Virus record (IMG/VR): IMGVR_UViG_3300022934_000202
Location: 1-22,949 of that record
DNA length: 22,949 nt
Source of the DNA: a virus
Reading direction: 5' to 3' (one strand)
The position numbers were made by a program, and so were the translations under genes. The notes under the pieces were generated by a model. That model saw only the letters and a list, made by a program, of their open reading frames with translations. It searched no databases and was not told where the DNA came from. Positions 1-22,949 of this stretch are shown here, in pieces (the stretch's first letter is position 1; the number at the start of each line of letters is the position of its first letter).

Positions 1-253
1 CTTTGAGGTATCAGGCGAATGCACCACCTGCGGCGGCGAAGTCGAAGAGTTCCAAGCCGCAGACGGCGATGCCGTTATTCTGCGCTGGATTGACTGCGCA
101 GAAATCTGCAACGAATGCGACGAGAAAAAAGAGGATTGCGACTGCCGAGCCTGCGAAGCCTGCGGCGCACTTGCCGACTTTGACATTTGCACGGACTGCG
201 ACCACGACGCAAGCGCAGGTGATTGCGACTGCGACACCTGCACGGACGCATGA
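1..253 (+). CDS. Cys-rich acidic protein, C-terminal part (5' end outside window)
   Basis: The frame is open from the left edge (codons in phase with base 2) to a TGA at 251-253, giving 83 visible residues. The product is very acidic and has many cysteine pairs: an early CTTC, then CAEICNEC, CDCRACEAC, CTDC and CDCDTC near the end. This pattern suggests several small zinc-binding knuckles. No family is recognised. Many short Cys-pair proteins follow elsewhere in the window, so it fits the local style of gene. It lies 9 nt upstream of the next gene and is probably co-transcribed with it. An overlapping frame on the same bases also stays open, but it gives low-complexity Ala/Thr sequence and is a shadow. 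The true start cannot be seen. Confidence 0.6.
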   Translation, partial: FEVSGECTTCGGEVEEFQAADGDAVILRWIDCAEICNECDEKKEDCDCRACEACGALADFDICTDCDHDASAGDCDCDTCTDA

Positions 254-262
254 GGTGTGCGC

Positions 263-910
263 ATGGTGAACACCTTCTTCACTGATGACTGCGCCATCGT
301 GTGCGCTCGCAACCTTTGCGATAAGCACCTGCGCAGTCAAGCAAAAGAACAGGTTCAAATCATCGTTCAAGCGTTGCTCAATCGAGGCGCACCAGCCAGC
401 AAAATGCCGCTAACCGCCAACGGAACGCCGCATAAGGGTGGCTATCCGCATCATCCCGTTGTGCTTTGGACGCAGGAAAATCTCAGCAATTTCGTTTGGG
501 CAATCAAACACGCTCAAGAAATCTGCGTGATATACGAAGAAACCTTCGGCAAAGAACACGCCAGCGCAAAGCAAATCATGCACCTTTATCATCAGGTCGC
601 TTGGTCTGACTTCATACCGAGAGGAAGCCAAACACCGTTCCCCCGTGCGCTCAACCAATCGAAAGGGCGCAACCTTGACCTGTTGAGCGACAACCTCACC
701 AGCGTTCAAGCATACCGTGCGTTTTACAATCGGGACAAAGCACGCTTCGCAGAATGGACGAAGCGCACACCGCCTTCTTGGTTCGTGCCTTCATGTGCAT
801 GGTGCGAGGACGAATTGCCCTATGCTGAAATCGTCAATGCGCCGAAGCGATTCAAGAAAGAGCGCATTTGCGCTTCATGCTTTGCGTATTGCGGGGGCGA
901 ACCGATTTGA
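263..910 (+). CDS. Conserved phage-type protein of unknown function with C-terminal zinc knuckle
   Basis: 215 residues from ATG 263, preceded by a GAGGTG ribosome-binding site; an in-frame GTG lies at 257. The N-terminal half resembles a widespread family of uncharacterised phage proteins: a short start leading to CDKH (about residues 19-22), then HHPVVLW, an ENLSNFVW helix, HAQEICVIYEE and FGKEH. The biochemical role of that family is not known to me. The C-terminal 40 residues carry CAWC and CASC pairs, a likely zinc knuckle. The gene sits between two Cys-rich genes. The family resemblance is from memory of the motif order, not a search, so I leave the function open. Confidence 0.75.
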   Translation: MVNTFFTDDCAIVCARNLCDKHLRSQAKEQVQIIVQALLNRGAPASKMPLTANGTPHKGGYPHHPVVLWTQENLSNFVWAIKHAQEICVIYEETFGKEHASAKQIMHLYHQVAWSDFIPRGSQTPFPRALNQSKGRNLDLLSDNLTSVQAYRAFYNRDKARFAEWTKRTPPSWFVPSCAWCEDELPYAEIVNAPKRFKKERICASCFAYCGGEPI

Positions 911-912
911 GG

Positions 913-1068
913 ATGTTCTGCCCGGTCTGCTCTAATCGAATGGATTCCGTTCCTATGAACATTGTGCGCAAAAAGCATAACGCCAGCGTGCGAGCGCACT
1001 GCTCGAAGTGCGGCCACCGCTACGCTTACCGCCGAAGAGGACATCGTGAAATATCGGCGCATCGTTGA
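913..1068 (+). CDS. Small zinc-ribbon protein
   Basis: 51 residues starting at ATG 913, 2 nt after the preceding stop, so probably translationally coupled. It has a CPVC pair near the N-terminus and CSKCGH about 28 residues later, the spacing of a classic zinc ribbon, followed by a basic tail rich in Arg. Basic zinc ribbons of this kind often bind nucleic acid, but nothing here fixes a target. The frame extends further upstream inside the previous gene (to 868); the ATG at 913 is preferred because it gives a compact ribbon and minimal overlap. Confidence 0.6.
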   Translation: MFCPVCSNRMDSVPMNIVRKKHNASVRAHCSKCGHRYAYRRRGHREISAHR

Positions 1069-1082
1069 GAGCGCAGACCCAC

Positions 1083-1092
1083 GGTTTAAATG
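1083..1092 (+). promoter_or_regulatory. Archaeal TATA-box promoter, leaderless type
   Basis: GGTTTAAATG followed by AACATC matches the GGTTTATATGAAC promoter block seen several times in this window. Its centre is about 27 nt before ATG 1115, so the transcript should start at or next to the start codon. Confidence 0.6.
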
Positions 1093-1114
1093 AACATCGC
1101 GCACTTGCTACGCC

Positions 1115-1981
1115 ATGCACAGGCAGGCGTTTCGGCACTGCGCAGAATGGATAATCGCACCGACCGACCAAATCACCGTCGAGCGGTTCTTCGGCTGGCG
1201 CAGGGGCGCAAAGCGCCGAATGTTTCAGCCGTGCGCAGTCCTCAAGGCTGGCGAGCATCAAATCATCGTTGATGGGCTGGCCGAAGTCTTTGCGCTCATT
1301 GACGCGATTCAGCCGGGACTCCCACGCAACGCGCTCAAGGAGGGGATGAAGGGCGGGTTCATGCTTGAAGGCGAACCGTCGTTTGCGCACGACCTCCAAG
1401 CCTTCCTTCGCGAAAGCGCGTTTGACTTCCTCATTTTCTCTTGCGATTCCGTGCGCATGAGGGAACCCAATTCGGACGCGATGTTCGTCGGTTTGAAAAT
1501 GCGCACTGTCGTCGCTCACACGGCCATGAAATCCCCTCCCGCTACACCCGCCCACCTCGGCGCAACATGGGCGATTAGAGCGCCTTACAGGGGCAAAAAC
1601 GGCGAGGTTCTCGCGCCTGCGCTGGTGTTCGGGGATTATCCGCACATCGTCGTCGCCATGAACCTCAATGACACGCCTTCCTTCTCGTTCAAAGAGCCGA
1701 CGCTCATTTCAAGTGTGGTCTGCGCAGTGGGTGGTGGGCTTGACCTGCGCCCACACGCTACGGTTAAGCGCGATGACCCCCACAGAATTATTGATGAAAT
1801 CGAAAGACGCATCGCGGATATGCACGAAAGCGGTTTTGTGCCTGAACCGTTTCTTGGCGACGACCGCACGGGTGGAGGGATGACCTTCAAGGAACGGGAC
1901 ATGATAGAACGACAACGGGCGATTCAGGCGTTTTGCGACCTTGACACCCCCATTCTTTCAACGGGTCTGAAGGAATTGTGA
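1115..1981 (+). CDS. Hypothetical protein (288 aa)
   Basis: 288 residues, not recognised. ATG 1115 is the first start after an in-frame stop at 1091-1093 and lies 27 nt from a TATA box, which supports it strongly. The protein is mixed alpha/beta in appearance, without signal peptide or clear membrane segment, and has a short run of hydrophobic strands around VFALIDAI, FDFLIFSCDS and HIVVAMNLN. A Gly-rich stretch (VGGGLDL) and a charged C-terminal helix follow. It appears to be a single-gene unit, since a terminator-like hairpin follows directly. A 230-codon open frame lies on the opposite strand (953-1645), but it has no promoter and the gene order is otherwise all plus-strand. Confidence 0.7.
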   Translation: MHRQAFRHCAEWIIAPTDQITVERFFGWRRGAKRRMFQPCAVLKAGEHQIIVDGLAEVFALIDAIQPGLPRNALKEGMKGGFMLEGEPSFAHDLQAFLRESAFDFLIFSCDSVRMREPNSDAMFVGLKMRTVVAHTAMKSPPATPAHLGATWAIRAPYRGKNGEVLAPALVFGDYPHIVVAMNLNDTPSFSFKEPTLISSVVCAVGGGLDLRPHATVKRDDPHRIIDEIERRIADMHESGFVPEPFLGDDRTGGGMTFKERDMIERQRAIQAFCDLDTPILSTGLKEL

Positions 1982-1992
1982 AAGAAAAAAAC

Positions 1993-2013
1993 GGCGCACT
2001 GCTCGCCATTTTT
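1993..2013 (+). terminator. Hairpin plus T-run terminator
   Basis: A 4-bp GC stem (GGCG 1993-1996 with CGCC 2004-2007, 7-nt loop) is followed by five T at 2009-2013, 12 nt after the stop of the 1115 gene. More T-runs follow at about 2060-2067 and 2117-2135, as is common at archaeal 3' ends. The stem is short, so the T-runs may be the real signal. Confidence 0.45.
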
Positions 2014-2160
2014 GTTTATTGTTTATTGCGTTAAAGGGATTTTGAAATTAAGAGCCTCTTTCTTTTTCAGCATCCTATGAAAGAAAAAAGATTTCACGCT
2101 AATGCGCCGCAGTGCTTTGTTTTATTTTTTCTCAATTCTTTCAACGCTACGGAAAGAAAG

Positions 2161-2170
2161 GGTTGATATG
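2161..2170 (+). promoter_or_regulatory. Archaeal TATA-box promoter for the 2193 operon
   Basis: GGTTGATATG, preceded by a purine stretch, is centred about 26 nt before ATG 2193, which fits a leaderless start. It heads the longest operon in the window, including the helicase. Confidence 0.6.
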
Positions 2171-8906: not shown

Positions 8907-9068
8907 ATGACTTTCAAGAAAACGGATGCTATGCGCACATCGGACTCCCCGACCTGCCTCTATGGTTCACGGTGCGTTTGCTATTGTCATTCGCACGGCG
9001 CTCTCGGATGCACCGACTGCTTGAAGGGCATGAAGTGCGTTGATGTAAGAATGGAGGGGAACCTTTGA
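8907..9068 (+). CDS. Cys-rich microprotein (53 aa)
   Basis: 53 residues; ATG 8907 directly follows the upstream stop. It has eight Cys/His candidates: C17, CVCYCHSH at about 23-30, CTDC at about 35-38 and C43, enough for two metal sites. TTGA overlap with the kinase gene, so the two are translationally coupled. No family recognised. Confidence 0.5.
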   Translation: MTFKKTDAMRTSDSPTCLYGSRCVCYCHSHGALGCTDCLKGMKCVDVRMEGNL

Positions 9069-9676
9069 TTATCGGAATACACGGACGAATGCGCACAGGA
9101 AAGAGCGAATTGGCTCGGCTCATCGAAGCCCACTATGAAAACGACTTTTCTCATGTGCGCATCGCTTCATTTGCGAACCGACTCCGCCAAGAATGCGCAG
9201 AAATGATGTTCCCGCTTCACGGAAAGGAAGGCGCTCGCTACATTTGGGATGTGTATGAGGACTATAACAAAGAGTCTATGCGTCCCGTGCTTCAAGCGGT
9301 GGGTCAGGCAAAGCGTATGCTCATTGACACCGACTATTGGGTTCACGCATTGGCGGAGGATAACCCCGACTACGGGAACAATTCAACACTTCTCATCATT
9401 GATGATGTGCGCCATGAGAACGAAGCACGCTGGATTCTTGAGAATGGCGGCGTATTCATCCGTCTTGACGCATCCCGTGAAACGCTCATCGAGCGTGGCG
9501 CAACCGAAGAACGACTTGCGCACTTCTCCGAAACGGCCATGAACCGAATCACGGACACCGAGCGAGAATATGCGCACCGATGTTTGCGCATTAACACTTC
9601 GGGACTTTCCGTTCAAGGGACATTCAAGGGTCTGCGCAGATTCATAACCGAATTGATTATGGGGGTTGAAGAATGA
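9065..9676 (+). CDS. Deoxynucleoside monophosphate kinase
   Basis: 203 residues, starting at TTG 9065 in a TTGA overlap. The P-loop GRMRTGKS (7-14) follows a short strand (IIGIH). IIDDVRHENEA (about 111-121) matches the DVR-x-x-N-E signature of phage dNMP kinases (T4 gene 1 type), in which the Asp-Val-Arg-Asn-Glu region binds the substrate. A later strand, VFIRLDASRETLIERG, and a C-terminal helix complete the fold. The family phosphorylates dNMPs to dNDPs to supply replication. It sits between zinc microprotein genes and just before RFC, in keeping with a replication operon. Adenylate-kinase-like relatives are the alternative. Confidence 0.75.
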   Translation: MIIGIHGRMRTGKSELARLIEAHYENDFSHVRIASFANRLRQECAEMMFPLHGKEGARYIWDVYEDYNKESMRPVLQAVGQAKRMLIDTDYWVHALAEDNPDYGNNSTLLIIDDVRHENEARWILENGGVFIRLDASRETLIERGATEERLAHFSETAMNRITDTEREYAHRCLRINTSGLSVQGTFKGLRRFITELIMGVEE

Positions 9677-9846
9677 GTCGTGGAGGCATCGGGGTCTGTA
9701 TGTCCTGCAAGAACCGCCGAAAAATCGTTGCTACGGTTAGCGTCGAATTGCTTGGGTGCGACTTCGGCTCTCGCTATCTATGTCGAGCCTGCGCAAAAGA
9801 GATGTTCACATGGAAGGACTTTGATTCGGGGAGGGAATTGTATTGA
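9673..9846 (+). CDS. Zinc-ribbon microprotein (57 aa)
   Basis: 57 residues; ATG 9673 overlaps the kinase stop, and TTGA at 9843-9846 couples it to RFC. CMSC lies at residues 9-12, a basic turn KNRRK follows, and CRAC at about 37-40. A strand pair sits between. Last of the series of small Cys-pair proteins that starts at 7594. Role unknown; it may regulate or assist the clamp loader. Confidence 0.55.
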   Translation: MSRGGIGVCMSCKNRRKIVATVSVELLGCDFGSRYLCRACAKEMFTWKDFDSGRELY

Positions 9847-10742
9847 TTTGGTGGGAGAAGCACAGACCGCAAACCCTCGGTGATTTCATCGGGCAAGAGC
9901 ATATCATTGATGAAATGCGAGCCATCTGCGAAGGTGGTGCGCCAATGCAACACTTCATTTTCTATTCCCCCGAAGCCGGGACAGGCAAGACAACCCTCGC
10001 AAACATTATTGCGCAGGCACGGGGCTACACCATGCACACATTCAATGCGTCGTCCAAGCGCACACGGGGAATCGAGTTTATTGAAGAGGACATTGTGTTC
10101 CTCGCCAATTGCGGCAACGATGAAATCATCATCCTTCTTGACGAAGCAGACCGCCTCACCATTCAAGCGCAGGATGCGCTCAAAGGCGTGATTGAGAACG
10201 CCACCTGCTATTTCATTCTCACCTGCAACGACCTGAGCAAAGTGTCGCCGTGGTTGCAGTCCCGTTGTCAAGTGCGCACATTTTCTGCGCACAGTCAAGA
10301 CGACATGGTGAACCGACTTGAGCAAATCGCAGAAGCCGAGGGGCTTGCGTTTGACAGGACGGAGTTATCCACTATCGCCATCGCCCATCGTGGCGACCTG
10401 CGCAACGCATTGGGTGCGCTTCAATCAATATCCTGCCTTGAGCCTGCGGAAGCCGAGCGTTTTCTTTTGCGCTTGAACGAAGGGTTCAATGCTCGACGGT
10501 TCTTGACCTTGACAACAAAGGAAAAGGCCGTTGCCGAAGCCGTGAAAATGACGGGTGCGCAGAATATGCGCCGTATCGTGCGAGAGGTGTTTGACTTCGC
10601 CGTTGAGAGCGAAGCAACGCCAGCCATGATTCAGCGTGTAGTCGAAGCATCCATCATCAGTGAACGGGATTTGGTGAACGGGGTGGACGAAAGCATAGTC
10701 CGTTGGGACTACGCCCGAATGCTCTCCGTTGGGTTTATATGA
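9843..10742 (+). CDS. rfcS: Replication factor C small subunit (clamp loader ATPase)
   Basis: 299 residues, starting at TTG 9843 (TTGA). It begins with the RFC-box WWEKHRPQTLGDFIGQEHI. Walker A is SPEAGTGKTT (42-51), Walker B IILLDEAD (about 96-103), sensor 1 LTCND (about 126-130), and the SRC arginine-finger motif SRC at 140-142. Sensor 2 is GDLRNAL (about 189-195). The ATPase would load the clamp encoded at 13421 onto primed DNA. It is a little shorter than cellular RFC small subunits (about 320 aa), in the C-terminal collar. No large subunit is recognised in the window, so it may work as a homopentamer or with a host or divergent partner. The stop lies inside the promoter of the next gene. 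Confidence 0.9.
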   Translation: MIWWEKHRPQTLGDFIGQEHIIDEMRAICEGGAPMQHFIFYSPEAGTGKTTLANIIAQARGYTMHTFNASSKRTRGIEFIEEDIVFLANCGNDEIIILLDEADRLTIQAQDALKGVIENATCYFILTCNDLSKVSPWLQSRCQVRTFSAHSQDDMVNRLEQIAEAEGLAFDRTELSTIAIAHRGDLRNALGALQSISCLEPAEAERFLLRLNEGFNARRFLTLTTKEKAVAEAVKMTGAQNMRRIVREVFDFAVESEATPAMIQRVVEASIISERDLVNGVDESIVRWDYARMLSVGFI

Positions 10743-10744
10743 AC
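10726..10744 (+). promoter_or_regulatory. Archaeal BRE/TATA promoter
   Basis: CCGTTGGGTTTATATGAAC, with the TATA core at about 10733-10740, overlaps the RFC stop (TGA 10740-10742). The predicted start at about 10763 leaves a leader of about 15 nt before ATG 10778. Identical to the 5875-5893 copy. Confidence 0.7.
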
Positions 10745-10777
10745 AACAGGCATAGGGCAGAATACAACGGAAGTGAA

Positions 10778-12016
10778 ATGATGGTTGATAACACAATTAT
10801 GGAAAGAGTCGCAAAGAATGTCGGATGCGAAGTGCCTCAATTGCAGGCCAAGCACGAAGAAGTCCTTGCGGCAAACGAAGCCAATTTCAAGGCGATGGGT
10901 CTTGAGCAGAACGACATCGAGATGAAGGCTTTGCGCATGGCGGCGGCTGAATTGCGTGTGGTTGCACAACGACTTGCACGAAGCGGTTGCGAGAACCTTG
11001 AAGGAATGTTCATCAGCGTGCCTCGCACGAAGGACATCAGCGCACGGCAATACGCCAACATGAAGAATACCCTTCGTGGCCTCGATGAAGAAGCACGCAC
11101 TGCGATGGTTGCGCAAGGCGTGTGCGCACTGTTCTTGAATGACGATGTGAACGGCGGCTTCCGCTACATTCACAATTCCTCGCTTGAGAACAAACGCCCC
11201 TTTGAAGTGGTTTCCGACGAGAAGCACATGACCGACCTGCCGAAAGCGGCTATGGACTTGGAGGACGGCACGGGACACTTCGTTTTGATTGCCGACAAAT
11301 CCGCACCCACTTGGCCTTCGGGCGGCGCTAACTTCCGCTACGGTCGCTACAAAGCGCAGTCCGAACCAATGCGTGATTGCGTCTTTTTGGGTCGCTCAAA
11401 GGACAACAAAAACCTGCGCACAATCCGCATCCGTTTCACGGGCGAGGACGCAAGCATTCAGCACCCGACCTTCATCCCCGGTCGCATCCCTGCAAAATTG
11501 GGACGCAACGGTGATACCGCATACGCAAAGTCGGGCGTTTCCGTTTTCACGGCAGACTCGGAAGTGGTGAACATTTTCCCTGCGCCCCCTCTCGACTCGG
11601 ACGGCAAGGGCTTGCTCGCAGACCTGACCGATGTTGCCTTGCTCACGGGCATGGGCGACCTTGAAACATGGCTCGGCTCTCTCTCCGATAAGGAGAAGTG
11701 GGATGCTCAATGCGCAGTGCCTCTTGAGGTTGCGCACATTGACCCCCGTGAAGGCGGTGGTTATGTCATCACCCTCGCAGACCTTGACATCACCTCTCCG
11801 ATTCCCCCTATGGATTTGTGGGTTTCCCGTGAAGAGGACGCAAAGGTGGACTTCTCCGTTGGCTCAATCGTGCTTGCCGTTGGTGGCGCATGGATTGACA
11901 AAACGACTGAACTCCCACGCCTCGGTGTGAACGGATGGTGGGTCATGGAGTCCATTGAAGCCGTCGCCGTCGAGGAAGTCGTGCTTGAAGAAGGCGCAGA
12001 AGAAGGTGGTTGGTGA
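10778..12016 (+). CDS. Probable single-stranded-DNA-binding protein (tentative)
   Basis: 412 residues from ATG 10778 (a second ATG follows at once). The first 150 residues are mainly helical, with a basic, Ala-rich stretch. The middle has repeated strand-rich parts (FVLIADKSAPT, NLRTIRIRFTGE, GVSVFTADSEVVNIFPAPP). The end includes a possible OB-like segment (FSVGSIVLAVGGAWI...GVNGWWVMES) and then an acidic tail of about 20 residues ending GGW. An acidic tail with a terminal aromatic residue is a hallmark of SSBs such as E. coli SSB and T7 gp2.5. The next gene is a Sak4/RecA-like ATPase, a common partner of phage SSBs. The call rests on tail and context, not on a clear domain match; it could be another abundant replication protein. 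Confidence 0.45.
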   Translation: MMVDNTIMERVAKNVGCEVPQLQAKHEEVLAANEANFKAMGLEQNDIEMKALRMAAAELRVVAQRLARSGCENLEGMFISVPRTKDISARQYANMKNTLRGLDEEARTAMVAQGVCALFLNDDVNGGFRYIHNSSLENKRPFEVVSDEKHMTDLPKAAMDLEDGTGHFVLIADKSAPTWPSGGANFRYGRYKAQSEPMRDCVFLGRSKDNKNLRTIRIRFTGEDASIQHPTFIPGRIPAKLGRNGDTAYAKSGVSVFTADSEVVNIFPAPPLDSDGKGLLADLTDVALLTGMGDLETWLGSLSDKEKWDAQCAVPLEVAHIDPREGGGYVITLADLDITSPIPPMDLWVSREEDAKVDFSVGSIVLAVGGAWIDKTTELPRLGVNGWWVMESIEAVAVEEVVLEEGAEEGGW

Positions 12017-14962: not shown

Positions 14963-15466
14963 ATGGGAAGCAGACCTTTGACAAAAGTGTTTCACGCACA
15001 TCAGCGTGCTTTGATGGTTGAATATGTGGAAGAATGGCCTTACGGCTTCAAGGATGCGAGCGAGAAGGGTTATCCGAGGGTGATGAACCGGGCTATGTAT
15101 TTCTGCAAGTTTATGGATGTGGATTGTCATAACCACATTGAGGCATACACAACGGCGGTCGAGGTCGCAGAATGCGTCTATTTGGTCGGCAACACTTGGG
15201 TTAATGAGGATTACAGGGGGCAGGGAATCCACGCTGAAATGCTTCAATGGCGCAACGGTATTCTCAAGGAAACCTTCGGCGCAACCGACATTATCACGCT
15301 TCTGAATCCGCAGGAGGGCGCAAGTCTTGAGCAATTGCAGAAGGTTGTTTCTTCGCTCGGCTATCGCCGTTTGAAGTGGTCGGATTTGCGCAAAATGGGT
15401 GTGCCTATCAGCGTGCGTATGCAGATTCGCCGCAGTCGCCTCCAATTTTGGGGGAAGTCCCTTTGA
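14963..15466 (+). CDS. GNAT-family N-acetyltransferase
   Basis: 167 residues from ATG 14963, 27 nt from a TATA box. The GNAT motif A appears as NTWVNEDYRGQGIHAEMLQW (about 77-97), with the acetyl-CoA-binding R-G-Q-G-I/x pattern. A preceding strand (AECVYLVG) and a C-terminal segment with LGYRRLKW fit the fold. The family transfers acetyl groups to amines of proteins, small molecules or antibiotics; the substrate here is unknown. Being first in the polymerase operon is unusual for a GNAT and may mean it modifies replication or host proteins. TTGA overlap with polymerase. Confidence 0.75.
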   Translation: MGSRPLTKVFHAHQRALMVEYVEEWPYGFKDASEKGYPRVMNRAMYFCKFMDVDCHNHIEAYTTAVEVAECVYLVGNTWVNEDYRGQGIHAEMLQWRNGILKETFGATDIITLLNPQEGASLEQLQKVVSSLGYRRLKWSDLRKMGVPISVRMQIRRSRLQFWGKSL

Positions 15467-17688
15467 TTGTCGAGCGTGGCCGGGGCAACGAAGTTATCGT
15501 GCGCTATCGTGATGAGGCAGGTTTGCGCAAAGAGCAGAAGTTAAGCGCAGAACCGTTCTGCTTTGTGCAGAAGGACGACCTATTCAAAATCAATCGTGCG
15601 TTCACCAAACAAAGCGGAGAATACCGTGGTCTTTACGGCGAGGAATTGTTGAAGGTTCAATTCTCGACCACCGAGGATATGCGGGAGGGAATCAGGGGTG
15701 TGCGCACATGGGAGGCGAACATCGCACATGAGAACCGTGTTCTCGTTGAGAACGATTTCACCCTGCCGATGTATGAGCATCGGGTCTGCTATTTTGACAT
15801 GGAATGGATGATGGAGTCGGGTCAAATCACTATCATTGTCGTCCACGATTCGGAGGAAGGGGAATATGTGTTCTTCACCCATCCCGACTATGCGCAGGGG
15901 TATTATGACACCATTCAGTGCGCAAATCACCCCGATGGATTGACGGAGATTCACGCTGGCGAGCGCAAAATGAAGTGCTTCGCAGATGAACGGTCTATGC
16001 TTCTCGACTTTGCTCGCCTTCTGCGCAAACGGGACTATGACATTATCACGGGCTGGAATGTAGTCAATGCCGACATTCAGCAATTGTTCAAGCGATTCAA
16101 GGCTAACGACATTCAACCGAACCTGCTCTCTCCCATGAAGCGCATACGGTATGATTTCAAGGATTGGGGGCAACCTATCGTGGGAACGAATGTCATTGAC
16201 TTGATGGTGGCTTTCAAGAAGTTATGGACGCTCAAGAACGGTCAATTGCCTTCAATGGGACTTGGTGCGGTTTCTGCGCACTGCCTCGGAGAAACGAAGG
16301 TTGAATTGGCTGACGGACACAACACCTATTTCAGCGACTTCGGGACATACCTTGACTACGCACGACAGGATGTGCGCCTGTTGCCCCGCCTTGACGATAT
16401 GGTGGGCGCTCTCAATTATTTCACTGCCGTTCAGCACATCACGGGATGCGACATACGCACGACTCCGTGGGTTTCAAGACTCTTCCCCATCCTCGCCTTG
16501 CGCGACCCCGACTTCAAACGGCGCATACCGTCGAAACCACAATTTGAGAAGGTGGACTATCCCGGCGCAGACATTCAAACGGCTGATGCTGGTGTTTATC
16601 GGAATGTCGCCATCATGGACATCAAAGCCATGTATCATAGCAACATCAACCTTCACAACATTTGCTGGACGAACCTTGACGAAGAGGGCAAGGACTGCGG
16701 GAACGGTGTGCGGTTTGCGCAGAAGAAGGGTCTGCTCGGTCGGCAGATGGACAAAATGACCTCACTGCGCAACGAATACAAAGAGCGCATGAAGAATGCG
16801 TCGAGCGATGGCGAGCGCAGAATGTATGACGGTCTGCAATACGCCACGAAGTCGCTCGTCGCCTCCATGTATGGCGTTGCTGGCGATAGCAAGTGTGGTT
16901 TCTATCACCCCGATATTGCCGCCTCAATCACTTACACCTCCCGCCAAACGCTCTATCGTCTGCGTGATGAATGCGAGGCTTTGGGTATGCCTGCTATTTA
17001 CGGACACACCGACTCGGTGTTTGTTCAGTGCGAATCGCCTGAGAAGGGCGTTGAAGCACTGCGCACAATCAATGAGAACATGAGTCCCATTGAAACCGAG
17101 TTTGAGAAGTGGTGCAAGTCCTTCCTCTTGATGGCGAAGAATCGCTACGCAGGCGAAGTGCGCTGGACTGATGGAGAACACCACGATGCGCAAATCTATG
17201 TGAAGGGAATCGAGATGAAGCAGTCCCGACTCCCCAATGCGATGAAGAACGCGATGCAAACCGTCATCGGCGGGATTCTATCTGCGCAAACCGAGGAACA
17301 GGTCGTTGCGCCGTTGGAGGATTTGGTGCGCAGAATTGTCGCAAGGGAGGTTCCCGTTGCCGACCTGTGCATCAAGGCCAAGTTAAGCAAGGACTTGAGC
17401 GAATACACGACGCTCGGAGAAGTGCGTGCTGGTGCGCATTGGGCGAATGTGCATTTGGGGAAGGGCTATCGCAAAGACGACTATTTCCTCTCGACGCTCA
17501 ACGATAACGGCGACTACATCGCCTTTGACGACCCATCTGAAATTGAGGGTATTGCGCAGGTCGGTTATCGCCACCTCGCAGAACGGTTCATCGTTGAAAA
17601 AGTGCGCCCGTATTTTGAAGTCATGCGTTGGGACATTGTGCGCATAGAGAATGCGCTCAACGGTCTTTCGGGCATGGGTTGGCTTTGA
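15463..17688 (+). CDS. polB: Family B DNA polymerase with 3'-5' exonuclease
   Basis: 741 residues from TTG 15463, in a TTGA overlap; the frame runs further up to 15376 but that part overlaps the GNAT gene. Exo I is YFDMEWM (D112, E114), Exo II is TGWNVVNAD (D204, with the usual Phe before Asp replaced by Ala), and Exo III is YARQD (Y299, D303). Polymerase motif A is MDIKAMYHS (D386), motif B is KSLVASMYG (about 462-470), and motif C is YGHTDS (512-517), where the usual YGDTDS has His in place of the first Asp; the catalytic second Asp is kept. The KGIEMK segment matches the KxY/KKRY region. So both activities look intact. It copies the viral genome with the clamp and RFC. It ends GMGWL, a possible clamp-binding tail. 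Confidence 0.93.
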   Translation: MIVERGRGNEVIVRYRDEAGLRKEQKLSAEPFCFVQKDDLFKINRAFTKQSGEYRGLYGEELLKVQFSTTEDMREGIRGVRTWEANIAHENRVLVENDFTLPMYEHRVCYFDMEWMMESGQITIIVVHDSEEGEYVFFTHPDYAQGYYDTIQCANHPDGLTEIHAGERKMKCFADERSMLLDFARLLRKRDYDIITGWNVVNADIQQLFKRFKANDIQPNLLSPMKRIRYDFKDWGQPIVGTNVIDLMVAFKKLWTLKNGQLPSMGLGAVSAHCLGETKVELADGHNTYFSDFGTYLDYARQDVRLLPRLDDMVGALNYFTAVQHITGCDIRTTPWVSRLFPILALRDPDFKRRIPSKPQFEKVDYPGADIQTADAGVYRNVAIMDIKAMYHSNINLHNICWTNLDEEGKDCGNGVRFAQKKGLLGRQMDKMTSLRNEYKERMKNASSDGERRMYDGLQYATKSLVASMYGVAGDSKCGFYHPDIAASITYTSRQTLYRLRDECEALGMPAIYGHTDSVFVQCESPEKGVEALRTINENMSPIETEFEKWCKSFLLMAKNRYAGEVRWTDGEHHDAQIYVKGIEMKQSRLPNAMKNAMQTVIGGILSAQTEEQVVAPLEDLVRRIVAREVPVADLCIKAKLSKDLSEYTTLGEVRAGAHWANVHLGKGYRKDDYFLSTLNDNGDYIAFDDPSEIEGIAQVGYRHLAERFIVEKVRPYFEVMRWDIVRIENALNGLSGMGWL

Positions 17689-17724: not shown

Positions 17725-18036
17725 ATGGTGCGAGAAAGCCGAAAAATGACGATGCGAGAAGTGCAAAAAGAATTGGAGGGTATGAAGAACGACATTCAGC
17801 AGTCCATGCAATTCTTGAATGTCCTCTTCGCTGAAATGGATAAGTGCAACATGGTTCTCATTCGACTTCTTGAGAAGGGTGGTTTGCTTCACCAAAAGAC
17901 CTGCGCACACTGCGGTTTCAATGTGAACACGCCGATGTTTGACGACATTCCCATCCCCGAAGAATGTCCTGCCTGTCAAAAGTCGCTTGACGAAACCAAG
18001 CAGACCACGCTTCCCGAAGAAAAAGAAGAGGAATGA
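17725..18036 (+). CDS. Coiled-coil plus zinc-knuckle protein (103 aa)
   Basis: 103 residues; ATG 17725 is picked by its 27-nt distance to the TATA box (ATG 17701 lies within the box). Residues 5-55 form a charged helix likely to make a coiled coil (MREVQKELEGMKNDIQQSM...). CAHCG (about 62-66) and CPAC (about 85-88) make a zinc knuckle. The tail is acidic. No family recognised; first gene of the nuclease/methyltransferase operon. ATGA overlap with the nuclease. Confidence 0.6.
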   Translation: MVRESRKMTMREVQKELEGMKNDIQQSMQFLNVLFAEMDKCNMVLIRLLEKGGLLHQKTCAHCGFNVNTPMFDDIPIPEECPACQKSLDETKQTTLPEEKEEE

Positions 18037-18893
18037 GCATGAGCGACCCTGCGCAAATGACGGTTGAGGAATTGGCGAAAGCCGCCACCTATGACCCGAC
18101 CGATGGGAAATTGCTCAAAATCAGCAAGTCCACCTTTATGACCTATTCAAAATGCCCTCGGCAATTTTGGATGCAGAAGGTCATCCTCAAGGATTTGAGA
18201 GTCCCTGCTACGCCTGAAATGGAGAGAGGGACACGCATTCACACGGCTCTCGAAACCATCTATGACAATTGGGAGGGTCAAAGCATTCTTGCGCCTCTTA
18301 TCCCCGCAGAACAGGTTGAGGATGGCGTGCAGGAATTGGTTGCGCTTGAGGAACAACGGCTCAAGGAATGGGGCATTGAGTCCTTTGCGCCCGACGAATA
18401 TGAAGAATACCGTGCCGTTTGGGATGCCGAGCGGGAGGTTGTTCTCGTCGGGAAAATTGACGGCGTGCTGGTGCATCCCGATGGCGGTCTTTGCATCTAT
18501 GAATTGAAAACGGGCAACATGAACAAAGGCAAATTGTCCCGCACACGCAGGGAATTGTGCTTCTATTCCCATGTTCTGCGCCTGATGGGTGAAACCCGAC
18601 CAATCACGCACTTCGCATACCTTGCGCCCGACGCAGACAACATGGACTTCGTGATGGATATGCTCAACGACTCCAAGCGACAGGTGATGCTCGGTGAAGA
18701 GAAGGGCGTTCTCATCGTTGAGAAGGTCAGTCAGCGCAGTCATAACGCCTTCCTCAAGGCGCTCGATAAGGCCGTTGAGGGTCTGAAGGCGCATGAGAAT
18801 CCGATGAAGTGGTCGGATTATTTTTGCCCTCAGTGGTGCGAGTTTTCTGCGCAGTGCGAAGCCGAATTGACAGGGGTTGGTGATGAATGGTGA
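18033..18893 (+). CDS. PD-(D/E)XK nuclease, Cas4/RecB-like with Fe-S cysteines
   Basis: 286 residues; ATG 18033 overlaps the upstream stop. A SxSTFMTYSKCPRQF opening (C41) matches the first RecB/Cas4 motif; GTRIH (about 66-70) gives the His. KIDG (D143) and YELKTG (E157, K159) are the catalytic D...ExK. RRELCFYSH lies where the QxxxY motif is usual, with Glu in place of Gln. Three cysteines near the end (C265, C269, C275) together with C41 give the four-Cys 4Fe-4S set known in AddB and Cas4 proteins. Such nucleases trim 5' or 3' ends in recombination or CRISPR adaptation; no CRISPR genes or arrays are seen here, so a role in recombination or replication is likelier. Ends GDEW, overlapping the next start. 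Confidence 0.8.
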   Translation: MSMSDPAQMTVEELAKAATYDPTDGKLLKISKSTFMTYSKCPRQFWMQKVILKDLRVPATPEMERGTRIHTALETIYDNWEGQSILAPLIPAEQVEDGVQELVALEEQRLKEWGIESFAPDEYEEYRAVWDAEREVVLVGKIDGVLVHPDGGLCIYELKTGNMNKGKLSRTRRELCFYSHVLRLMGETRPITHFAYLAPDADNMDFVMDMLNDSKRQVMLGEEKGVLIVEKVSQRSHNAFLKALDKAVEGLKAHENPMKWSDYFCPQWCEFSAQCEAELTGVGDEW

Positions 18894-19039
18894 TTATCTG
18901 CGCAGAATGTGATGGTGAAATGGTCGTTGGCGACGAAGAAGCGAAGCCTGTTATGCTCATCACGGGAGATTCCGAAACGGAGAGTCAAAGGCTCGCCATC
19001 TGCAAAATCTGCGGCCATCGGCAGGTTATTAAGGACTAA
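18887..19039 (+). CDS. Zinc-ribbon microprotein (50 aa)
   Basis: 50 residues from ATG 18887, or 49 from GTG 18890; it overlaps the nuclease stop. CAEC (about 5-8) and CKICGH (about 39-44) form a ribbon with strands between (GEMVVGDEEA, VMLITGD). The stop TAA lies 16 nt before the methyltransferase start. No specific role known. Confidence 0.6.
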   Translation: MVIICAECDGEMVVGDEEAKPVMLITGDSETESQRLAICKICGHRQVIKD

Positions 19040-19055
19040 CTGTTTATGCGAAAGC

Positions 19056-19961
19056 ATGACGAAGAAGGTTATCGGCGTTGATTTGTATTGCGGTATTGGC
19101 GGAAGCACGCAAGGTATGCTTGACGCTGGCGCAGAAGTCATCCTGAGCATAGACTGTTGGGAAGTGGCCGAGCGAGTCCACAAACACAATTTTCCCGATG
19201 TTCCGTTCATCAACCGAAGGCTCGGTGAGGACTTTGACGAGGATATGCGCATCGTTGTCGAGGCAATCAAAGAGGCGGTCAAGAAGTGGGGTGGGCGCAC
19301 TGAGGTTCACATCCACATTCACGCATCGCCGCCATGTCAAGCACTGAGCAACCTCGGCAAGAAGAATTACACCGATGGGGTCGGTGCTATGGAGGCGTTT
19401 TTGCGCATGATTGATGAACTCAAGACTATGAACCTATGCGACTCTTGGACGATGGAGAATGTTCTCCCCGCACGCAAATATCTGCCGGGTGTCCCGTATA
19501 AAATCCTTGACGCAAGCGACTTTGGCGCACACACGAAGCGCAGGAGGTATTTTGCTGGCGAGGGATGGACTGCGCAGAAAACGGGCGGCGCTCTCCCGTG
19601 GGACGAAGTGATAAATGACCCGACGATTCCCGAAGGCGCAGTCCTTAATGCGTGTGCGCACGGGGAAAGCATCAGTCCGAGAAGTCAATTTGCCGACACA
19701 CCGAAGGGGGAGGTTATGCGCACTTTGACCCGTATGCTCTCAAATATCCGCGTGATGAATGAGGACGGGACGGCTTTCATCAAGGTGCGAAGCATGACTA
19801 TCCCTGAGAAATTGCGCTTTCAGGGCTTCCCACCATCGTTCTCGATTCCCGAAGACATCACCAAGACCGACGCAAGCAGTGGTTCGGGGAATGTTGTCTG
19901 CCCTCCTGTGATGAAGGCAATCATTGAAGGTATTCATCACGGCGGCTATGTTTGGCTTTGA
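19056..19961 (+). CDS. C5-cytosine DNA methyltransferase
   Basis: 301 residues from ATG 19056; the open frame extends to 18909, but that covers the preceding gene. Motif I is DLYCGIGG (9-16), motif IV ASPPCQALS with catalytic C94, motif VI WTMENV (E135), motif VIII KRRRYF (161-166), and motif X GNVVCPP near the end. All key residues for 5-methylcytosine transfer are present. The target-recognition region between motifs VIII and IX is short, so the site cannot be predicted. No restriction partner is seen next to it, which makes it an orphan enzyme, probably protecting viral DNA. Ends YVWL. No promoter directly upstream; expressed from the 17694 promoter. Confidence 0.9.
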   Translation: MTKKVIGVDLYCGIGGSTQGMLDAGAEVILSIDCWEVAERVHKHNFPDVPFINRRLGEDFDEDMRIVVEAIKEAVKKWGGRTEVHIHIHASPPCQALSNLGKKNYTDGVGAMEAFLRMIDELKTMNLCDSWTMENVLPARKYLPGVPYKILDASDFGAHTKRRRYFAGEGWTAQKTGGALPWDEVINDPTIPEGAVLNACAHGESISPRSQFADTPKGEVMRTLTRMLSNIRVMNEDGTAFIKVRSMTIPEKLRFQGFPPSFSIPEDITKTDASSGSGNVVCPPVMKAIIEGIHHGGYVWL

Positions 19962-19966
19962 CGATA

Positions 19967-19999: not shown

Positions 20000-20989
20000 A
20001 TGATACGATTCCCCCGACAGGTCGGCCTCAAGCGTGCGATTTGCCGCTCGCGTGAGGACTTTGATGCGTATGTGCGCAGGCTCAACGGTCGCTCATGCCT
20101 TTACACCTCGCTCTATTCCTTTGATGTCGAGCGGGACTATGATTCGGTCGTCATGGACAGGGCATGGTGGGACTTTGACATGAACGACGACTACACGATG
20201 GATGAAGTCAAGCATGATGTAGCGGCCTTGATTCAGCGTCTTGAGGGTGATGTGCGCCTCGTCGCCACCGGGAGAGGGTTTCATGTCCACCAGCACTTCA
20301 AGCGCCCTGTGCGTGGCCGAGATTGGTCGCAACACCTTGACCGCTATCAGCGCAGAATGGCCGATGGCCTCGCCAGCCTTGACGGTGTGGGCTATCCCGA
20401 AAAAATGACCCGCATATCGGGAACATTCAATGTCAAGCGCAAGCGGTGGGCGGTTTCGATTCCTGCGCACGATTTTGCGCAAGACCCCTTCAATTTCCCG
20501 ATTCCCGACAAACCACTTCCTGTTTCCGACAACATAGACCCCTTCTTTGGTCGCTTTGCGGAAAGCGAATGCTTTGATTTGGTGAAATGGGTGCATGACA
20601 ATCCGCCACCCAAGCGCCACACGACGCAACGGGAGTCCACTGTCTCTGTTGGATTCCTCGGCGGAGAATGCGCACTTCCGAATTGTCTTGAGCGAGCAAT
20701 TCAGGTGAGCAATCCTCCGCACCATGTTCGGGTTGCGCTCGTTCAGGAGATGCGCAGACAATTGGCGTTCTATGCACACCCGAAGGACTTAACGGATGAG
20801 GAAAACGATGAAATAACAAACGGCATCTGCTCATTCATAGAAACATTGGGGTGGACTGACTACAACGAAGGCATCACACGCAAATATGTTCACGGCGCAG
20901 TGCGCAAATACGCTCATGCGCCGTCGCCATTTTGGTATCGCAAACACAATCTATGCAACGGAGAAGGGTGTTGGTTCTGTGCGCAGTGA
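20000..20989 (+). CDS. Archaeo-eukaryotic primase, PriS-like with PriL-like Fe-S end
   Basis: 329 residues from ATG 20000, 29 nt after a TATA-like box. The AEP catalytic core has WWDFDMND (D58, D60), then TGRGFHVHQHF with the sGxGxHxH-type His (H95, H97), and RISGTFNVKR (about 138-147), the third motif region. The last 110 residues hold GGECALPNC (C224, C229) and end with C319, C324, C327. This resembles the PriL C-terminal Fe-S domain, with the preceding LPPC-type and terminal C-x4-C-x2-C pattern. A single-chain catalytic plus PriL-like fusion is seen in some mobile elements and viruses. It would make primers for the polymerase. The stop overlaps the next start. Confidence 0.8.
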   Translation: MIRFPRQVGLKRAICRSREDFDAYVRRLNGRSCLYTSLYSFDVERDYDSVVMDRAWWDFDMNDDYTMDEVKHDVAALIQRLEGDVRLVATGRGFHVHQHFKRPVRGRDWSQHLDRYQRRMADGLASLDGVGYPEKMTRISGTFNVKRKRWAVSIPAHDFAQDPFNFPIPDKPLPVSDNIDPFFGRFAESECFDLVKWVHDNPPPKRHTTQRESTVSVGFLGGECALPNCLERAIQVSNPPHHVRVALVQEMRRQLAFYAHPKDLTDEENDEITNGICSFIETLGWTDYNEGITRKYVHGAVRKYAHAPSPFWYRKHNLCNGEGCWFCAQ

Positions 20990-21182
20990 GGATGAATTGA
21001 GGGATATGCTGAAAGAAGCATCGGCGTTGCGCGATTCGTGGCTTCAAGTCTTGACGGATAAGGCATACAAAGACAACAGTGAAATGGTCGAAGCCATTCG
21101 CAATTACAATGCTTTGCGTGGAGTCATCAAAACCCTTCATTGGGCTTTGCGCCATCCTTTAGCGGTTTCCCCGCTTCACTGA
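20979..21182 (+). CDS. Hypothetical small protein (67 aa)
   Basis: About 67 residues from GTG 20979, which overlaps the primase end by 11 nt; the frame stays open further upstream inside the primase. The sequence is a long charged helix pair (SEDELRDMLKEASALRDSWLQVLTDK, then SEMVEAIRNYNALRGVIKTLHWALR), consistent with a helical bundle or small coiled coil. No family recognised. It could be a primase partner by position. Confidence 0.5.
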   Translation: MRSEDELRDMLKEASALRDSWLQVLTDKAYKDNSEMVEAIRNYNALRGVIKTLHWALRHPLAVSPLH

Positions 21183-21188
21183 GCGCAA

Positions 21189-21200
21189 TTCATTATAAGG
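21189..21200 (+). promoter_or_regulatory. TATA-like promoter of the ERCC4 nuclease
   Basis: TTCATTATAAGG is centred about 25 nt before ATG 21220. It differs from the GGTTTATAT group, so it may be controlled differently. Confidence 0.45.
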
Positions 21201-21219
21201 CGTGCCTGCGCACAAAGGC

Positions 21220-21927
21220 ATGATGATATATGCCGACGACAGGGAGAACGAGAGGCTTCTCCATCGTCTTTACGCAAAGGTTGGCGACCGGAAGCACGAC
21301 AACAAAGGGCAGTGCATCGTCAAGCGTTTGAGCGTGGGCGACTACATCATCGGTGAATACGGAATCGAGGCGAAGGAGATTAACGACCTGTATCGCTCAA
21401 TCCTCGGCATTGGGCGCAACGGGCGCACGGTCAAGCACCAATTGCAGGAATTGTGCGAGATGTTTGAATACCCGATTCTCGCCGTCTATAACACGCAGTT
21501 AAAGCCGTTCTTCAAGGGGCGCAAACCGACTCGACAGGAAACGGCGAATGAAATCCTGCGCCAAAAGCGCATCATCAAGTCGTTCAAAATGACGCTCTAT
21601 TCACAATTCCCAAAAGTGCGCATGATTGAGTTTGTTGATATGGACGACTTCATCGAATGGCTCGCCATCCTCAACATGAACAGTGAAATGCGCAAAAACC
21701 TGAATCCCGTTGCGAAGCAGAAAGAGCCACCGTCCGACCCAAGACTGCGTGCGCTCATGGGTGTGCAGGGAATCACCGAGGATATTGCCGTCGCCCTGCT
21801 TGAAAAATACGGCTCGCTTGGGGAATTGCTCAAGACCAAAGTGAAGCAGAAGGACTTGATGAAAATTAAGGGCATCGGAAGAATCACGGCACGGCGAATC
21901 AAGGCGTTGTCTAAGCGGTGGGTTTAA
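21220..21927 (+). CDS. ERCC4/XPF-type nuclease with helix-hairpin-helix
   Basis: 235 residues; ATG 21220 is set by the TATA spacing, though GTG 21202 is in frame. The nuclease core shows IYADDREN (3-10), VGDYII (about 39-44) and IEAKEINDLYRSI (E50, K52, D56), which matches the XPF/Mus81 signature GD...ExK-x3-D with Ala in place of the Arg of ERK. The C-terminal 65 residues are a tandem helix-hairpin-helix (GVQGITEDIAVALLEKYGS, then IKGIGRITARRIKAL). Such enzymes cut branched DNA at ss/ds junctions, as in flap, fork and recombination intermediates. It would help resolve viral replication or recombination forks. Ends KRWV, with the stop inside the next promoter. Confidence 0.9.
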   Translation: MMIYADDRENERLLHRLYAKVGDRKHDNKGQCIVKRLSVGDYIIGEYGIEAKEINDLYRSILGIGRNGRTVKHQLQELCEMFEYPILAVYNTQLKPFFKGRKPTRQETANEILRQKRIIKSFKMTLYSQFPKVRMIEFVDMDDFIEWLAILNMNSEMRKNLNPVAKQKEPPSDPRLRALMGVQGITEDIAVALLEKYGSLGELLKTKVKQKDLMKIKGIGRITARRIKALSKRWV

Positions 21928-21931
21928 TAAG
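21920..21931 (+). promoter_or_regulatory. TATA-like promoter facing the structural gene
   Basis: GGGTTTAATAAG followed by ACAACAGG matches the promoter block and contains the stop of the nuclease gene. It is centred about 27 nt before ATG 21952 and points toward the 3' end of the minus-strand gene. Confidence 0.55.
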
Positions 21932-21951
21932 ACAACAGGTGTAAGGCCTAA

Positions 21952-22161
21952 ATGAGCGAGTCGCACGCCCTCCTGTCCTTCTTGGTTTCGGCATTCCTCC
22001 TTCCCCTGTGTGGCTCGCTCACCTTTATTCTCAAAAGGGCGAGAGGTTCAAGGACTGAGCCTGCCCCGCAACACTGTTTCTGCGCAGACGCAGTGAAACC
22101 GTGTGGACGGTCAAGGATTGATAGCCTGCGGTGTCCGAGCCTTGCGCTGGTTTGCGACTGA
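21952..22161 (+). CDS. Possible small membrane protein or non-coding transcript
   Basis: 69 codons from ATG 21952 follow a good promoter at leaderless spacing. The first 27 residues include a hydrophobic stretch (ALLSFLVSAFLLPLCGSLTFIL) followed by basic residues, like a signal anchor. The second half runs opposite the end of the minus-strand gene and looks unselected (Cys, Arg and Pro rich). The 5' end of the message can fold into a 14-bp hairpin. So it may be a real small membrane protein, a regulatory RNA, or both. Confidence 0.35.
   Translation: MSESHALLSFLVSAFLLPLCGSLTFILKRARGSRTEPAPQHCFCADAVKPCGRSRIDSLRCPSLALVCD
21953..22021 (+). repeat. Inverted repeat: 14-bp RNA hairpin at the convergent junction
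   Basis: Arm 21953-21966 (TGAGCGAGTCGCAC) pairs with 22008-22021 (GTGTGGCTCGCTCA) across a 41-nt loop. In the plus-strand RNA all 14 pairs form, two as G-U; in the minus-strand RNA those two become mismatches. This bias suggests the plus transcript is the structured one. Confidence 0.6.
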
Positions 22162-22949
22162 CTTCAATGTTGATTGTGTTCCCCGGTGTGCCTGCGCCGT
22201 CGAGGAAGCGGTTGTTCAGGATGGTGATATTTGAACGGTCTGCGCCTTGAGCGATGGTCGTCGTCTGCGCAACACTTGCGCCCGTTTCCTTGCACGATAC
22301 GGTCGTCGTGATGACGGCTGAACCGCCTCCCGTGATTGACTCAAGGGTGATGATAGCATCCACATTGATGAAACCCGTTGAAACATCATTCGGCACACGC
22401 ACATTCGTTGAATGTTTGTGCGTTTCGCCTTGTGCGCCCACTTCGGGGTCGTTGATGCCTGCGAGAACGAATCCGTCCGAGGTCATAATCGCTGAACCCT
22501 CAACGGGCGCTGGACTGCTCTCGATGCCGTCAATGTCCCGGTCGGCTGAAATCGCGATGGCTGGCTTCTTTGCGCCGAGAATCCCGAAGTCGCCCGTGGA
22601 TAGCAGGGTGTCGCTTGAGAACGAACCACGGCCTTTCAGCGTGCGTGTGAAGCCATTGGTTAGCGCATTCGTGGGGATTTTGCTTGCGAAGTCTTGAGAA
22701 GTGCCTCCGCCGATTGATTGGCGAGGGAATACGGGGTTTGGTTTAGCAACATCACCGTAGCCGCCTCCGGGCGTGATGGGTTGGGGAGAGGGTGCGGGAG
22801 GTGGTGATTCGGGTCGTGGTGGTTGGTTGCTTCCGCCGTTGTTCTTGAACACGCGAGCGAGCGCATAAGTGAAGTCCTTCTCCGTGCGCTCAAGGTTGAG
22901 AACGACTTCCTCAACATCCTGTTCTTTTTGCGACCACGATACGCCGCTA
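22031..22949 (-). CDS. Probable virion structural protein (5' end outside window)
   Basis: The minus-strand frame is open from the right edge to a stop at 22031-22033. From the edge it reads about 33 residues (SGVSWSQKEQDVEEVV... with a charged helix) before the first possible internal start at 22852, so it is a partial gene of at least 305 residues. A Pro/Gly-rich linker (PPRPESPPPAPSPQP) follows, then a strand-rich, Gly/Ser/Thr-rich region typical of capsid, tail or fibre proteins (TLESITGGGSAVITTTVS, SNITILNNRFLDG, LTVHTVSLRLR). No signal peptide or enzyme motif is visible. The opposite direction marks the boundary between the replication module and probably the structural module. The structural call is inference from composition. 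Confidence 0.55.
   Translation of the reverse strand, partial: SGVSWSQKEQDVEEVVLNLERTEKDFTYALARVFKNNGGSNQPPRPESPPPAPSPQPITPGGGYGDVAKPNPVFPRQSIGGGTSQDFASKIPTNALTNGFTRTLKGRGSFSSDTLLSTGDFGILGAKKPAIAISADRDIDGIESSPAPVEGSAIMTSDGFVLAGINDPEVGAQGETHKHSTNVRVPNDVSTGFINVDAIITLESITGGGSAVITTTVSCKETGASVAQTTTIAQGADRSNITILNNRFLDGAGTPGNTINIEVSRKPAQGSDTAGYQSLTVHTVSLRLRRNSVAGQAQSLNLSPF

What the first reader, a model, noticed from the sequence alone, without database searches (positions are those of the whole stretch)
1..22949. Five four-base palindromes (GATC, AGCT, ACGT, GTAC, CTAG) appear to be entirely absent
I scanned every line and line junction by eye and found no copy of any of these five. About 90 of each are expected in a random 22.9-kb sequence with near-even base use. 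The other three palindromes made of one each of A, C, G and T (TCGA, TGCA, CATG) are common. Loss of a set of palindromes on this scale is the mark of strong restriction pressure or of motif-targeting defence in the host. It would predict host enzymes cutting these five sites.
Basis: seen in the sequence. Interest (0 to 1): 0.85.

Follow-up and report, generated by a model that had tools for sequence, protein, structure and literature searches.

The report
Virus genome purged of restriction sites
This stretch of an uncultured tailed virus, probably of a marine archaeon, and its relatives have erased dozens of short DNA words completely, most of them known restriction-enzyme cutting sites, so the genome reads like a list of the DNA-cutting defences its hosts have used; the strategy is known, but rarely on this scale.

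Summary
Shuffling synonymous codons gives 70, 38, 68, 32 and 10. It is also incomplete: 18 words of 4-6 bases are at zero with 14 or more expected, including asymmetric ones. Across 22 larger related records, 3-34 words are extinct per virus, and the set differs between relatives. Of the distinct extinct six-base words, 59 of 68 are known restriction sites (background 16%, P = 3e-39). Random viral contigs average 0.25 extinct palindromic tetramers per 8 kb; this family averages 3.2. Purging is by synonymous recoding. One clade instead carries a three-methyltransferase cassette and keeps GATC and AGCT. Best explanation: restriction-site purging under many sequence-specific defences. Closest precedent: HF1-group haloviruses, which lack 21 six-base palindromes (PMC7230728). 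The host is unproven. Poseidoniales (Marine Group II) carry enzyme families for GATC, GGNCC and CCNGG, but a GATC enzyme was found in only 2 of 274 genomes, with no MjaI-type (CTAG) or DpnII-type (GATC) enzyme, and no relative of the viral polymerase was found there.

The parts
1..22949 (.). Whole record: zero copies of GATC, AGCT, ACGT, GTAC, CTAG, AGTA/TACT, and of longer words including GCAGC, GGACC, CCAGG, TGCCA, GTCAC, GCTCC, CACTC, ACAGC, GGCCC, CATTGC, CCCGAG, GAGCAC, GTCAAC
   Evidence: exact counts and Markov expectation; synonymous-shuffle null
15376..17688 (+). Family B DNA polymerase; used to find 79 related viral loci and to build the tree
   Evidence: Pfam PF00136 1.9e-40; tblastn best named hits are haloarchaeal tailed viruses at about 23-25%; relatives
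9843..10742 (+). Replication factor C small-subunit-like clamp loader, archaeal type
   Evidence: Pyrococcus RFCS 1iqp 1.9e-29; NF001679 9.5e-41
18033..18893 (+). PD-(D/E)XK (Cas4-like) nuclease of the replication module
   Evidence: PF12705 1.6e-16
18909..19961 (+). Divergent C5-cytosine DNA methyltransferase: the only recognised methyltransferase in the window and the candidate self-protection gene for a site that is kept; specificity unknown
   Evidence: PF00145 3.8e-20; TIGR00675 1.7e-14; apart from L002 (the same virus) its only homologue in the viral set is L068/G021, about 46%
21202..21927 (+). ERCC4/XPF-type nuclease with helix-hairpin-helix
   Evidence: PF02732 1.3e-10
9065..9676 (+). 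Deoxynucleotide monophosphate kinase
   Evidence: PF21448 3.1e-6, PF13238 1.1e-7

Best explanation
The window is part of a tailed virus of a marine, very probably archaeal, host. Its lineage has removed, by point mutation and mostly through synonymous codon choice, essentially every copy of the recognition sites of the sequence-specific nucleases it meets (mainly orthodox Type II restriction, plus Type IIS-like asymmetric sites). The list reflects the pooled repertoire of a host population over time, not one cell: it holds at least 18 words in this 23-kb fragment and up to 34 in a relative, and it changes between close relatives. Shown: exact zeros, lineage-specific sets, enrichment for known restriction sites, context-dependent synonymous codon choice, and one clade that keeps GATC and AGCT while carrying three adjacent methyltransferase genes. 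Inferred: that nuclease cleavage is the selecting agent, that the cassette methylates the kept sites, and that the hosts are Poseidoniales-like planktonic archaea.
For: Exact zeros and synonymous-shuffle null. Codon choice depends on whether it would make the site: Asp before C is GAC 52, GAT 0 (elsewhere 226:151); Ile after G uses ATC 0 of 69 (elsewhere 187 of 317); Thr before T uses ACG 0 of 52; Tyr after G uses TAC 0 of 21. Of the distinct extinct words in 23 records, 9/10 tetramers, 17/28 pentamers and 59/68 hexamers are known restriction sites (backgrounds 18%, 22%, 16%; P = 3e-7, 7e-6, 3e-39), and 56 of 68 hexamers are perfect or one-pair-off palindromes against 17% expected. The family far exceeds random viral contigs (3.16 against 0.25 extinct palindromic tetramers per 8 kb, P = 6.5e-18). 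Lambda, T4 and a cyanophage have none. States flip on the polymerase tree: ACGT 6, GTAC 9, CTAG 10 changes. All five loci with the cassette's C5 gene keep GATC and AGCT. Poseidoniales encode, beside C5 methyltransferases, enzymes of the Sau3AI, Eco47II, TdeIII, LlaMI and EcoRII families, whose known sites GATC, GGNCC and CCNGG/CCWGG are among the words most often extinct. Host DNA keeps the five tetramers at 0.61-1.01 of expectation.
Against: No cleavage or methylation was measured. The host is unproven: the family's polymerase is absent from 319 Poseidoniales genomes and a viral tRNA gave no specific match. In Poseidoniales a Sau3AI-type GATC enzyme is rare (2/274) and MjaI/DpnII families are absent, although GATC is the most widely purged word. 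Thirty or more enzymes is too many for one small archaeal genome, so a population-level argument is needed. The cassette/retention link is a single clade, hence one evolutionary event. Eleven of 28 extinct pentamers and AGTA match no listed enzyme.
Confidence: 0.86

Rival explanations
1. Virus-encoded restriction enzymes degrade host or competitor DNA and the virus purges its own sites to survive them.
For: Some archaeal tailed viruses do encode restriction-modification pairs (PMC8651126); the window has a C5 methyltransferase and a PD-(D/E)XK nuclease.
Against: The record with the most extinct words (G001, 34) shows no restriction-enzyme or DNA-methyltransferase family among the families listed for 45 of its larger ORFs (25 of 29 Pfam families shown), and a 62-kb virus could not hold about 30 nucleases. 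The PD-(D/E)XK protein sits among replication genes and has a counterpart in G001.
Confidence: 0.03
2. One defence system with variable or programmable specificity, or a modification-based scheme such as phosphorothioation or BREX, rather than many restriction enzymes, imposes the whole list.
For: Near-universal GATC loss is not matched by common GATC enzymes in Poseidoniales; some extinct words (AGTA, TGNCA in G019, GTAGA, CACTC) match no listed enzyme; sets turn over quickly.
Against: The words are strongly enriched for palindromes and coincide with catalogued Type II sites, which is what many separate orthodox enzymes would give; a programmable system would not be expected to prefer palindromes.
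Confidence: 0.07
3. Composition, codon bias or a replication/mutation bias of the virus removes these words without restriction.
For: TA-containing words are rare in this genome and TGCA, TCGA and CCGG are also depleted.
Against: Synonymous shuffles preserving proteins and codon usage give tens of copies; the avoided codon is used freely one base-context away; words are exactly zero on both strands while the same dinucleotides are common, and sets differ between close relatives.
Confidence: 0.01
4. Library or assembly artefact, e.g. a restriction digest before sequencing.
For: Many related contigs come from the same metagenomes.
Against: Contigs of one sample differ: sample 3300025098 has L055 (GATC 23/40) and L060 (0/44); sample 3300030116 has L039 (148/168) and L052 (0/23). 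A digest would not remove words selectively from one contig and not from another of the same library.
Confidence: 0.01

Closest known systems
HF1-group haloviruses (HF1, HF2, Serpecor1, Hardycor2, HRTV-5/7/8), PMC7230728
   Same: Archaeal tailed dsDNA viruses with PolB; complete absence of GATC and CTAG, of 21 six-base palindromes and of GGWCC, read as selection by diverse host defences. My scan of HF2 (50 kb) finds 26 extinct words, several shared with this family (GATC, CTAG, CCAGG, GCAGC, GGACC, CTCTTC, GAGCAC, TTCGAA).
   Different: Hypersaline hosts, polymerase of related haloviruses only about 23-25% identical. There GATC and CTAG are absent in all seven isolates; here up to nine palindromic tetramers are lost or nearly lost at once, the set changes between near relatives, and asymmetric words are shown to be purged.
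Archaeal tailed viruses that either self-methylate or purge motifs (Liu et al. 2021, PMC8651126)
   Same: Same trade-off: GATC frequent in viruses with a Dam methyltransferase, lacking in those without.
   Different: Here the trade-off is tied to a three-gene cassette (two N-type methyltransferases and one C5) and at least GATC and AGCT, in a marine clade.
Recognition-site avoidance in prokaryotic viruses (Rusinov et al. 2018, PMC6286503)
   Same: Complete elimination of orthodox Type II sites in non-temperate dsDNA viruses.
   Different: That survey starts from known host enzymes, finds complete or almost complete elimination in about a tenth of genomes, and rarely for other types; here tens of words per genome, including asymmetric Type IIS-like ones.
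Magroviruses (order Magrovirales) of Poseidoniales
   Same: Marine tailed viruses with a PolB-based replication module.
   Different: Described members are 90-110 kb (PMC12999244); many records here cluster at about 60-62 kb; no magrovirus sequence was available for direct comparison.

Membership tests
Restriction-site avoidance (orthodox Type II) | Sites far below expectation after correcting for composition and coding | tested here: met
Restriction-site avoidance (orthodox Type II) | Avoided words are recognition sites of Type II enzymes | tested here: met
   59/68 hexamers, 17/28 pentamers, 9/10 tetramers in the Bio.Restriction site list
Restriction-site avoidance (orthodox Type II) | The virus's host encodes the cognate enzymes | tested here: inconclusive
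   host not identified; in Poseidoniales, families for GATC, GGNCC, CCNGG/CCWGG seen but GATC in 2/274 and no MjaI or DpnII
HF1-like multi-motif purging in archaeal tailed viruses | Many palindromes simultaneously at zero genome-wide | tested here: met
   3-34 extinct words in 22 larger related records, 18 in the window
HF1-like multi-motif purging in archaeal tailed viruses | Archaeal host | tested here: inconclusive
   archaeal-type RFC, PolB nearest haloviruses, ERCC4 nuclease; no direct host link
HF1 group (genus-level relatives) | Close sequence relationship to HF1/HF2 | tested here: not met
   no megablast hit in phages; PolB only about 23-25% identical to the nearest haloviruses
Magrovirales | Genome 90-110 kb | tested here: inconclusive
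   related records reach 71.7 kb and cluster near 60-62 kb, but ends and completeness are not established
Magrovirales | Poseidoniales host | tested here: inconclusive
   no related polymerase in 319 Poseidoniales genomes
Self-methylation strategy | Kept sites are those methylated by the virus's own enzyme | tested here: inconclusive
   the 5 loci with the cassette's C5 gene keep GATC and AGCT, but all lie in one clade and no methylation data exist

The most novel reading that the evidence does not exclude
The extinct-word list of each virus is a readable record of the pooled nuclease specificities of an uncultured marine archaeal population, including specificities with no catalogued enzyme (TGNCA in G019 at 0 against about 235 expected, AGTA and TGSCA in the window, GTAGA, CGTCC), so it predicts undiscovered restriction or restriction-like systems and can be used to match viruses to hosts.
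Probability: 0.4. Interest if true: 0.72.

Novelty: new member of a known kind. Interest (0 to 1): 0.55.

Why it matters
Restriction is usually pictured as a few enzymes per host. If tens of words are purged per virus and the list changes between near relatives, these marine hosts must carry, as a population, a large and shifting set of sequence-specific nucleases, although reference genomes show few of them. The purged list then gives a sequence-only assay of defences that genome binning may miss, a way to match viruses with uncultured hosts, and candidate new enzyme specificities. It also offers a natural comparison of two counter-strategies in one family: purging sites, or carrying methyltransferases and keeping them.

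Tried and rejected
Own-genome check beyond the window: the record is the window. Megablast to named phages: none. Host by polymerase in 319 Poseidoniales genomes: none. Host by viral tRNA-Ala: 75-89% partial matches to ordinary tRNAs, not specific. Magrovirus reference OR863078 is not in the collection and two key magrovirus papers are not held. 'SPPY' hits in the G005, G006 and G021 proteins looked like N-methyltransferases by pattern, but belong to a protein family found across these viruses, apparently the counterpart of window 10703-12016 (judged by eye from the N-terminal sequence), so they were dropped. The site-by-site comparison with L119/L120 (52 sites of window-absent words in the relative, 0 kept) shows that the sets differ mostly by single-base changes, but zero kept is true by construction and the direction of change is unknown, so it is not used as a test. 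Reference MAGs often omit mobile islands (general knowledge), so low enzyme counts in hosts are weak evidence either way. Type I bipartite motifs were not searched: expected counts per genome are too low for the number of motifs.
Full report
OBSERVATION. The five tetramers are truly absent. Expected numbers from trinucleotides are 81 (GATC), 50 (AGCT), 73 (ACGT), 12 (GTAC) and 12 (CTAG). Keeping every protein and the pooled codon usage but shuffling synonymous codons, 200 shuffles give 70, 38, 68, 32 and 10 with minima 53, 26, 54, 20 and 3. The non-palindromic pair AGTA/TACT is the only other missing tetramer.

IT IS LARGER THAN FIVE WORDS. A scan of all 4-6-base words on both strands (zero with at least 14 expected, which by a Poisson argument gives about 0.002 false hexamers per genome; no extinct hexamers in Markov resimulations) finds 18 extinct words in the window: among them GCAGC 0/49, TGCCA 0/42, GCTCC 0/38, GGACC 0/36, GTCAC 0/31, CACTC 0/22 and GTCAAC 0/17. 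GTAC falls just under that threshold of expectation in a 23-kb fragment, although it too is at zero.

WHAT THE RECORD IS. The window is a complete IMG/VR record of 22,949 bases, probably a fragment of a tailed dsDNA virus, with a replication module on one strand: family B polymerase 15376-17688, RFC small-subunit-like clamp loader 9843-10742 (nearest solved: Pyrococcus RFCS, 1.9e-29), ERCC4 nuclease 21202-21927, PD-(D/E)XK nuclease 18033-18893, dNMP kinase 9065-9676 and a divergent C5 DNA methyltransferase 18909-19961. Named relatives of the polymerase are haloarchaeal tailed viruses at about 23-25% identity. A related 61.6-kb record has terminase, portal and tape-measure proteins. An archaeal host is likely; it is not shown.

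THE FAMILY. The polymerase finds 79 viral loci, 44-100% identical. Sets of palindromic tetramers are at exactly zero against tens expected in nearly all of them, but the sets differ: GATC is missing nearly everywhere, L034 lacks nine palindromes and L074 eight plus GGCC at one copy, L039 lacks none. In 22 larger records 3-34 words are extinct; the 60 kb read of G001 have 34, including classic sites such as CTGCAG, GATATC, ATCGAT, CCATGG and GTTAAC. On a 78-row polymerase tree the fewest changes of state are GATC 3, AGCT 2, ACGT 6, GTAC 9, CTAG 10. Controls: lambda 0, T4 0, a cyanophage 0, a marine single-cell virus 1, haloviruses HCTV-5 9, HRTV-27 15, HF2 26. In random viral contigs the mean number of extinct palindromic tetramers per 8 kb is 0.25 (maximum 2, n = 48), against 3.16 in this family (n = 67; P = 6.5e-18). 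Rows are related, so that P overstates independence, but the gap is large.

WHY RESTRICTION. Of the distinct extinct words, 9/10 tetramers, 17/28 pentamers and 59/68 hexamers are catalogued restriction sites (backgrounds 18, 22 and 16%; P = 3e-7, 7e-6, 3e-39), and 56/68 hexamers are palindromes or one pair away, i.e. they fit degenerate palindromes such as GTYRAC, CCWWGG, CTRYAG, RAATTY. Asymmetric Type IIS-like sites (GAAGAC, CTGAAG, CTCTTC, CGTCTC, GCAATG, GTATCC, GGATG) are also extinct in some records. The avoidance works at the level of codon choice, by context: before a C, Asp is GAC 52 and GAT 0, elsewhere 226:151; after a G, Ile is never ATC (0/69), elsewhere 187/317.

METHYLATION AS THE ALTERNATIVE. 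Seven loci that keep both GATC and AGCT form one clade. Five of the seven carry the C5 gene of a three-gene cassette (N-type, C5, N-type; complete in G012 and G014), a sixth carries part of an N-type gene, and no locus outside the clade has that C5 gene except a distant partial match in L075. This fits self-methylation replacing purging, as reported for GATC in haloviruses (PMC8651126), but is one event. The window's own C5 gene presumably protects some kept site; which one is unknown.

HOST SIDE. A Marine Group II 16S probe recovered Poseidoniales genomes. Their DNA keeps the five tetramers at 0.61-1.01 of expectation, so the words are not simply unusable there. PF01555 methyltransferases are over the cut-off in 164/311 genomes, and 28 of the 30 best loci are one conserved gene; PF00145 is over the cut-off in 35/311. 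Beside C5 genes lie enzymes of the Sau3AI (GATC), Eco47II and TdeIII (GGNCC), LlaMI (CCNGG) and EcoRII-C (CCWGG) families; the site specificities are those known for the families, from my own knowledge. Yet Sau3AI/MutH occurs in only 2 of 274 genomes and MjaI and DpnII in none. So either the pressure is spread thinly over a population, or bins miss mobile islands, or the hosts are others.

ALTERNATIVES. Virus-encoded nucleases: G001 shows no such family among 45 ORFs. Composition: excluded. Artefact: contigs of the same sample differ (L055 against L060; L039 against L052). A single variable-specificity system remains possible but does not explain the palindromic bias.

RELATION TO KNOWN WORK. 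HF1-group haloviruses lack GATC, CTAG, 21 six-base palindromes and (bar HRTV-7) GGWCC (PMC7230728), whose authors left non-palindromic words untested. Rusinov et al. (PMC6286503) found complete or almost complete elimination in about a tenth of viral genomes, essentially for orthodox Type II. The present case is the same kind of thing in a marine virus family, broader, with lineage-specific lists and asymmetric sites included.

Noticed in passing
window 1-22949: AGTA/TACT, a non-palindromic tetramer with no catalogued enzyme, is also at exactly zero (synonymous-shuffle mean 20 and 22).
   Followed up: partly
L113-L115 (record G019): TGCCA and TGACA, i.e. all of TGNCA, are at zero with about 235 expected; neither word is in the list of known restriction sites.
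   Followed up: partly
L107 292-4790 and L093 13111-17401: Three adjacent DNA methyltransferase genes (N-type, C5, N-type) form a cassette in the clade that keeps GATC and AGCT.
   Followed up: partly
L236-L265: One PF01555 DNA methyltransferase family sits in a conserved neighbourhood in 28 of the 30 best Poseidoniales hits, suggesting a core orphan methyltransferase.
   Followed up: no
L228:424-2643 and L275:167-2257: Long C5 methyltransferase frames of 743 and 705 aa in Poseidoniales; the first holds two C5 domains in one frame.
   Followed up: no
L319: A randomly drawn viral contig (67-kb record), not searched for homology, also lacks ACGT and GATC; possibly another virus group with the same habit.
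   Followed up: no
L097:5992-8856: 955-aa protein with glutamine amidotransferase-like and amidoligase-like matches in a 61.6-kb relative.
   Followed up: no
L147 (HF2) and L142 (HRTV-27): My scan gives 26 and 15 extinct 4-6-base words in 50 kb of these haloviruses, including asymmetric ones such as CTCTTC and GACATC.
   Followed up: partly
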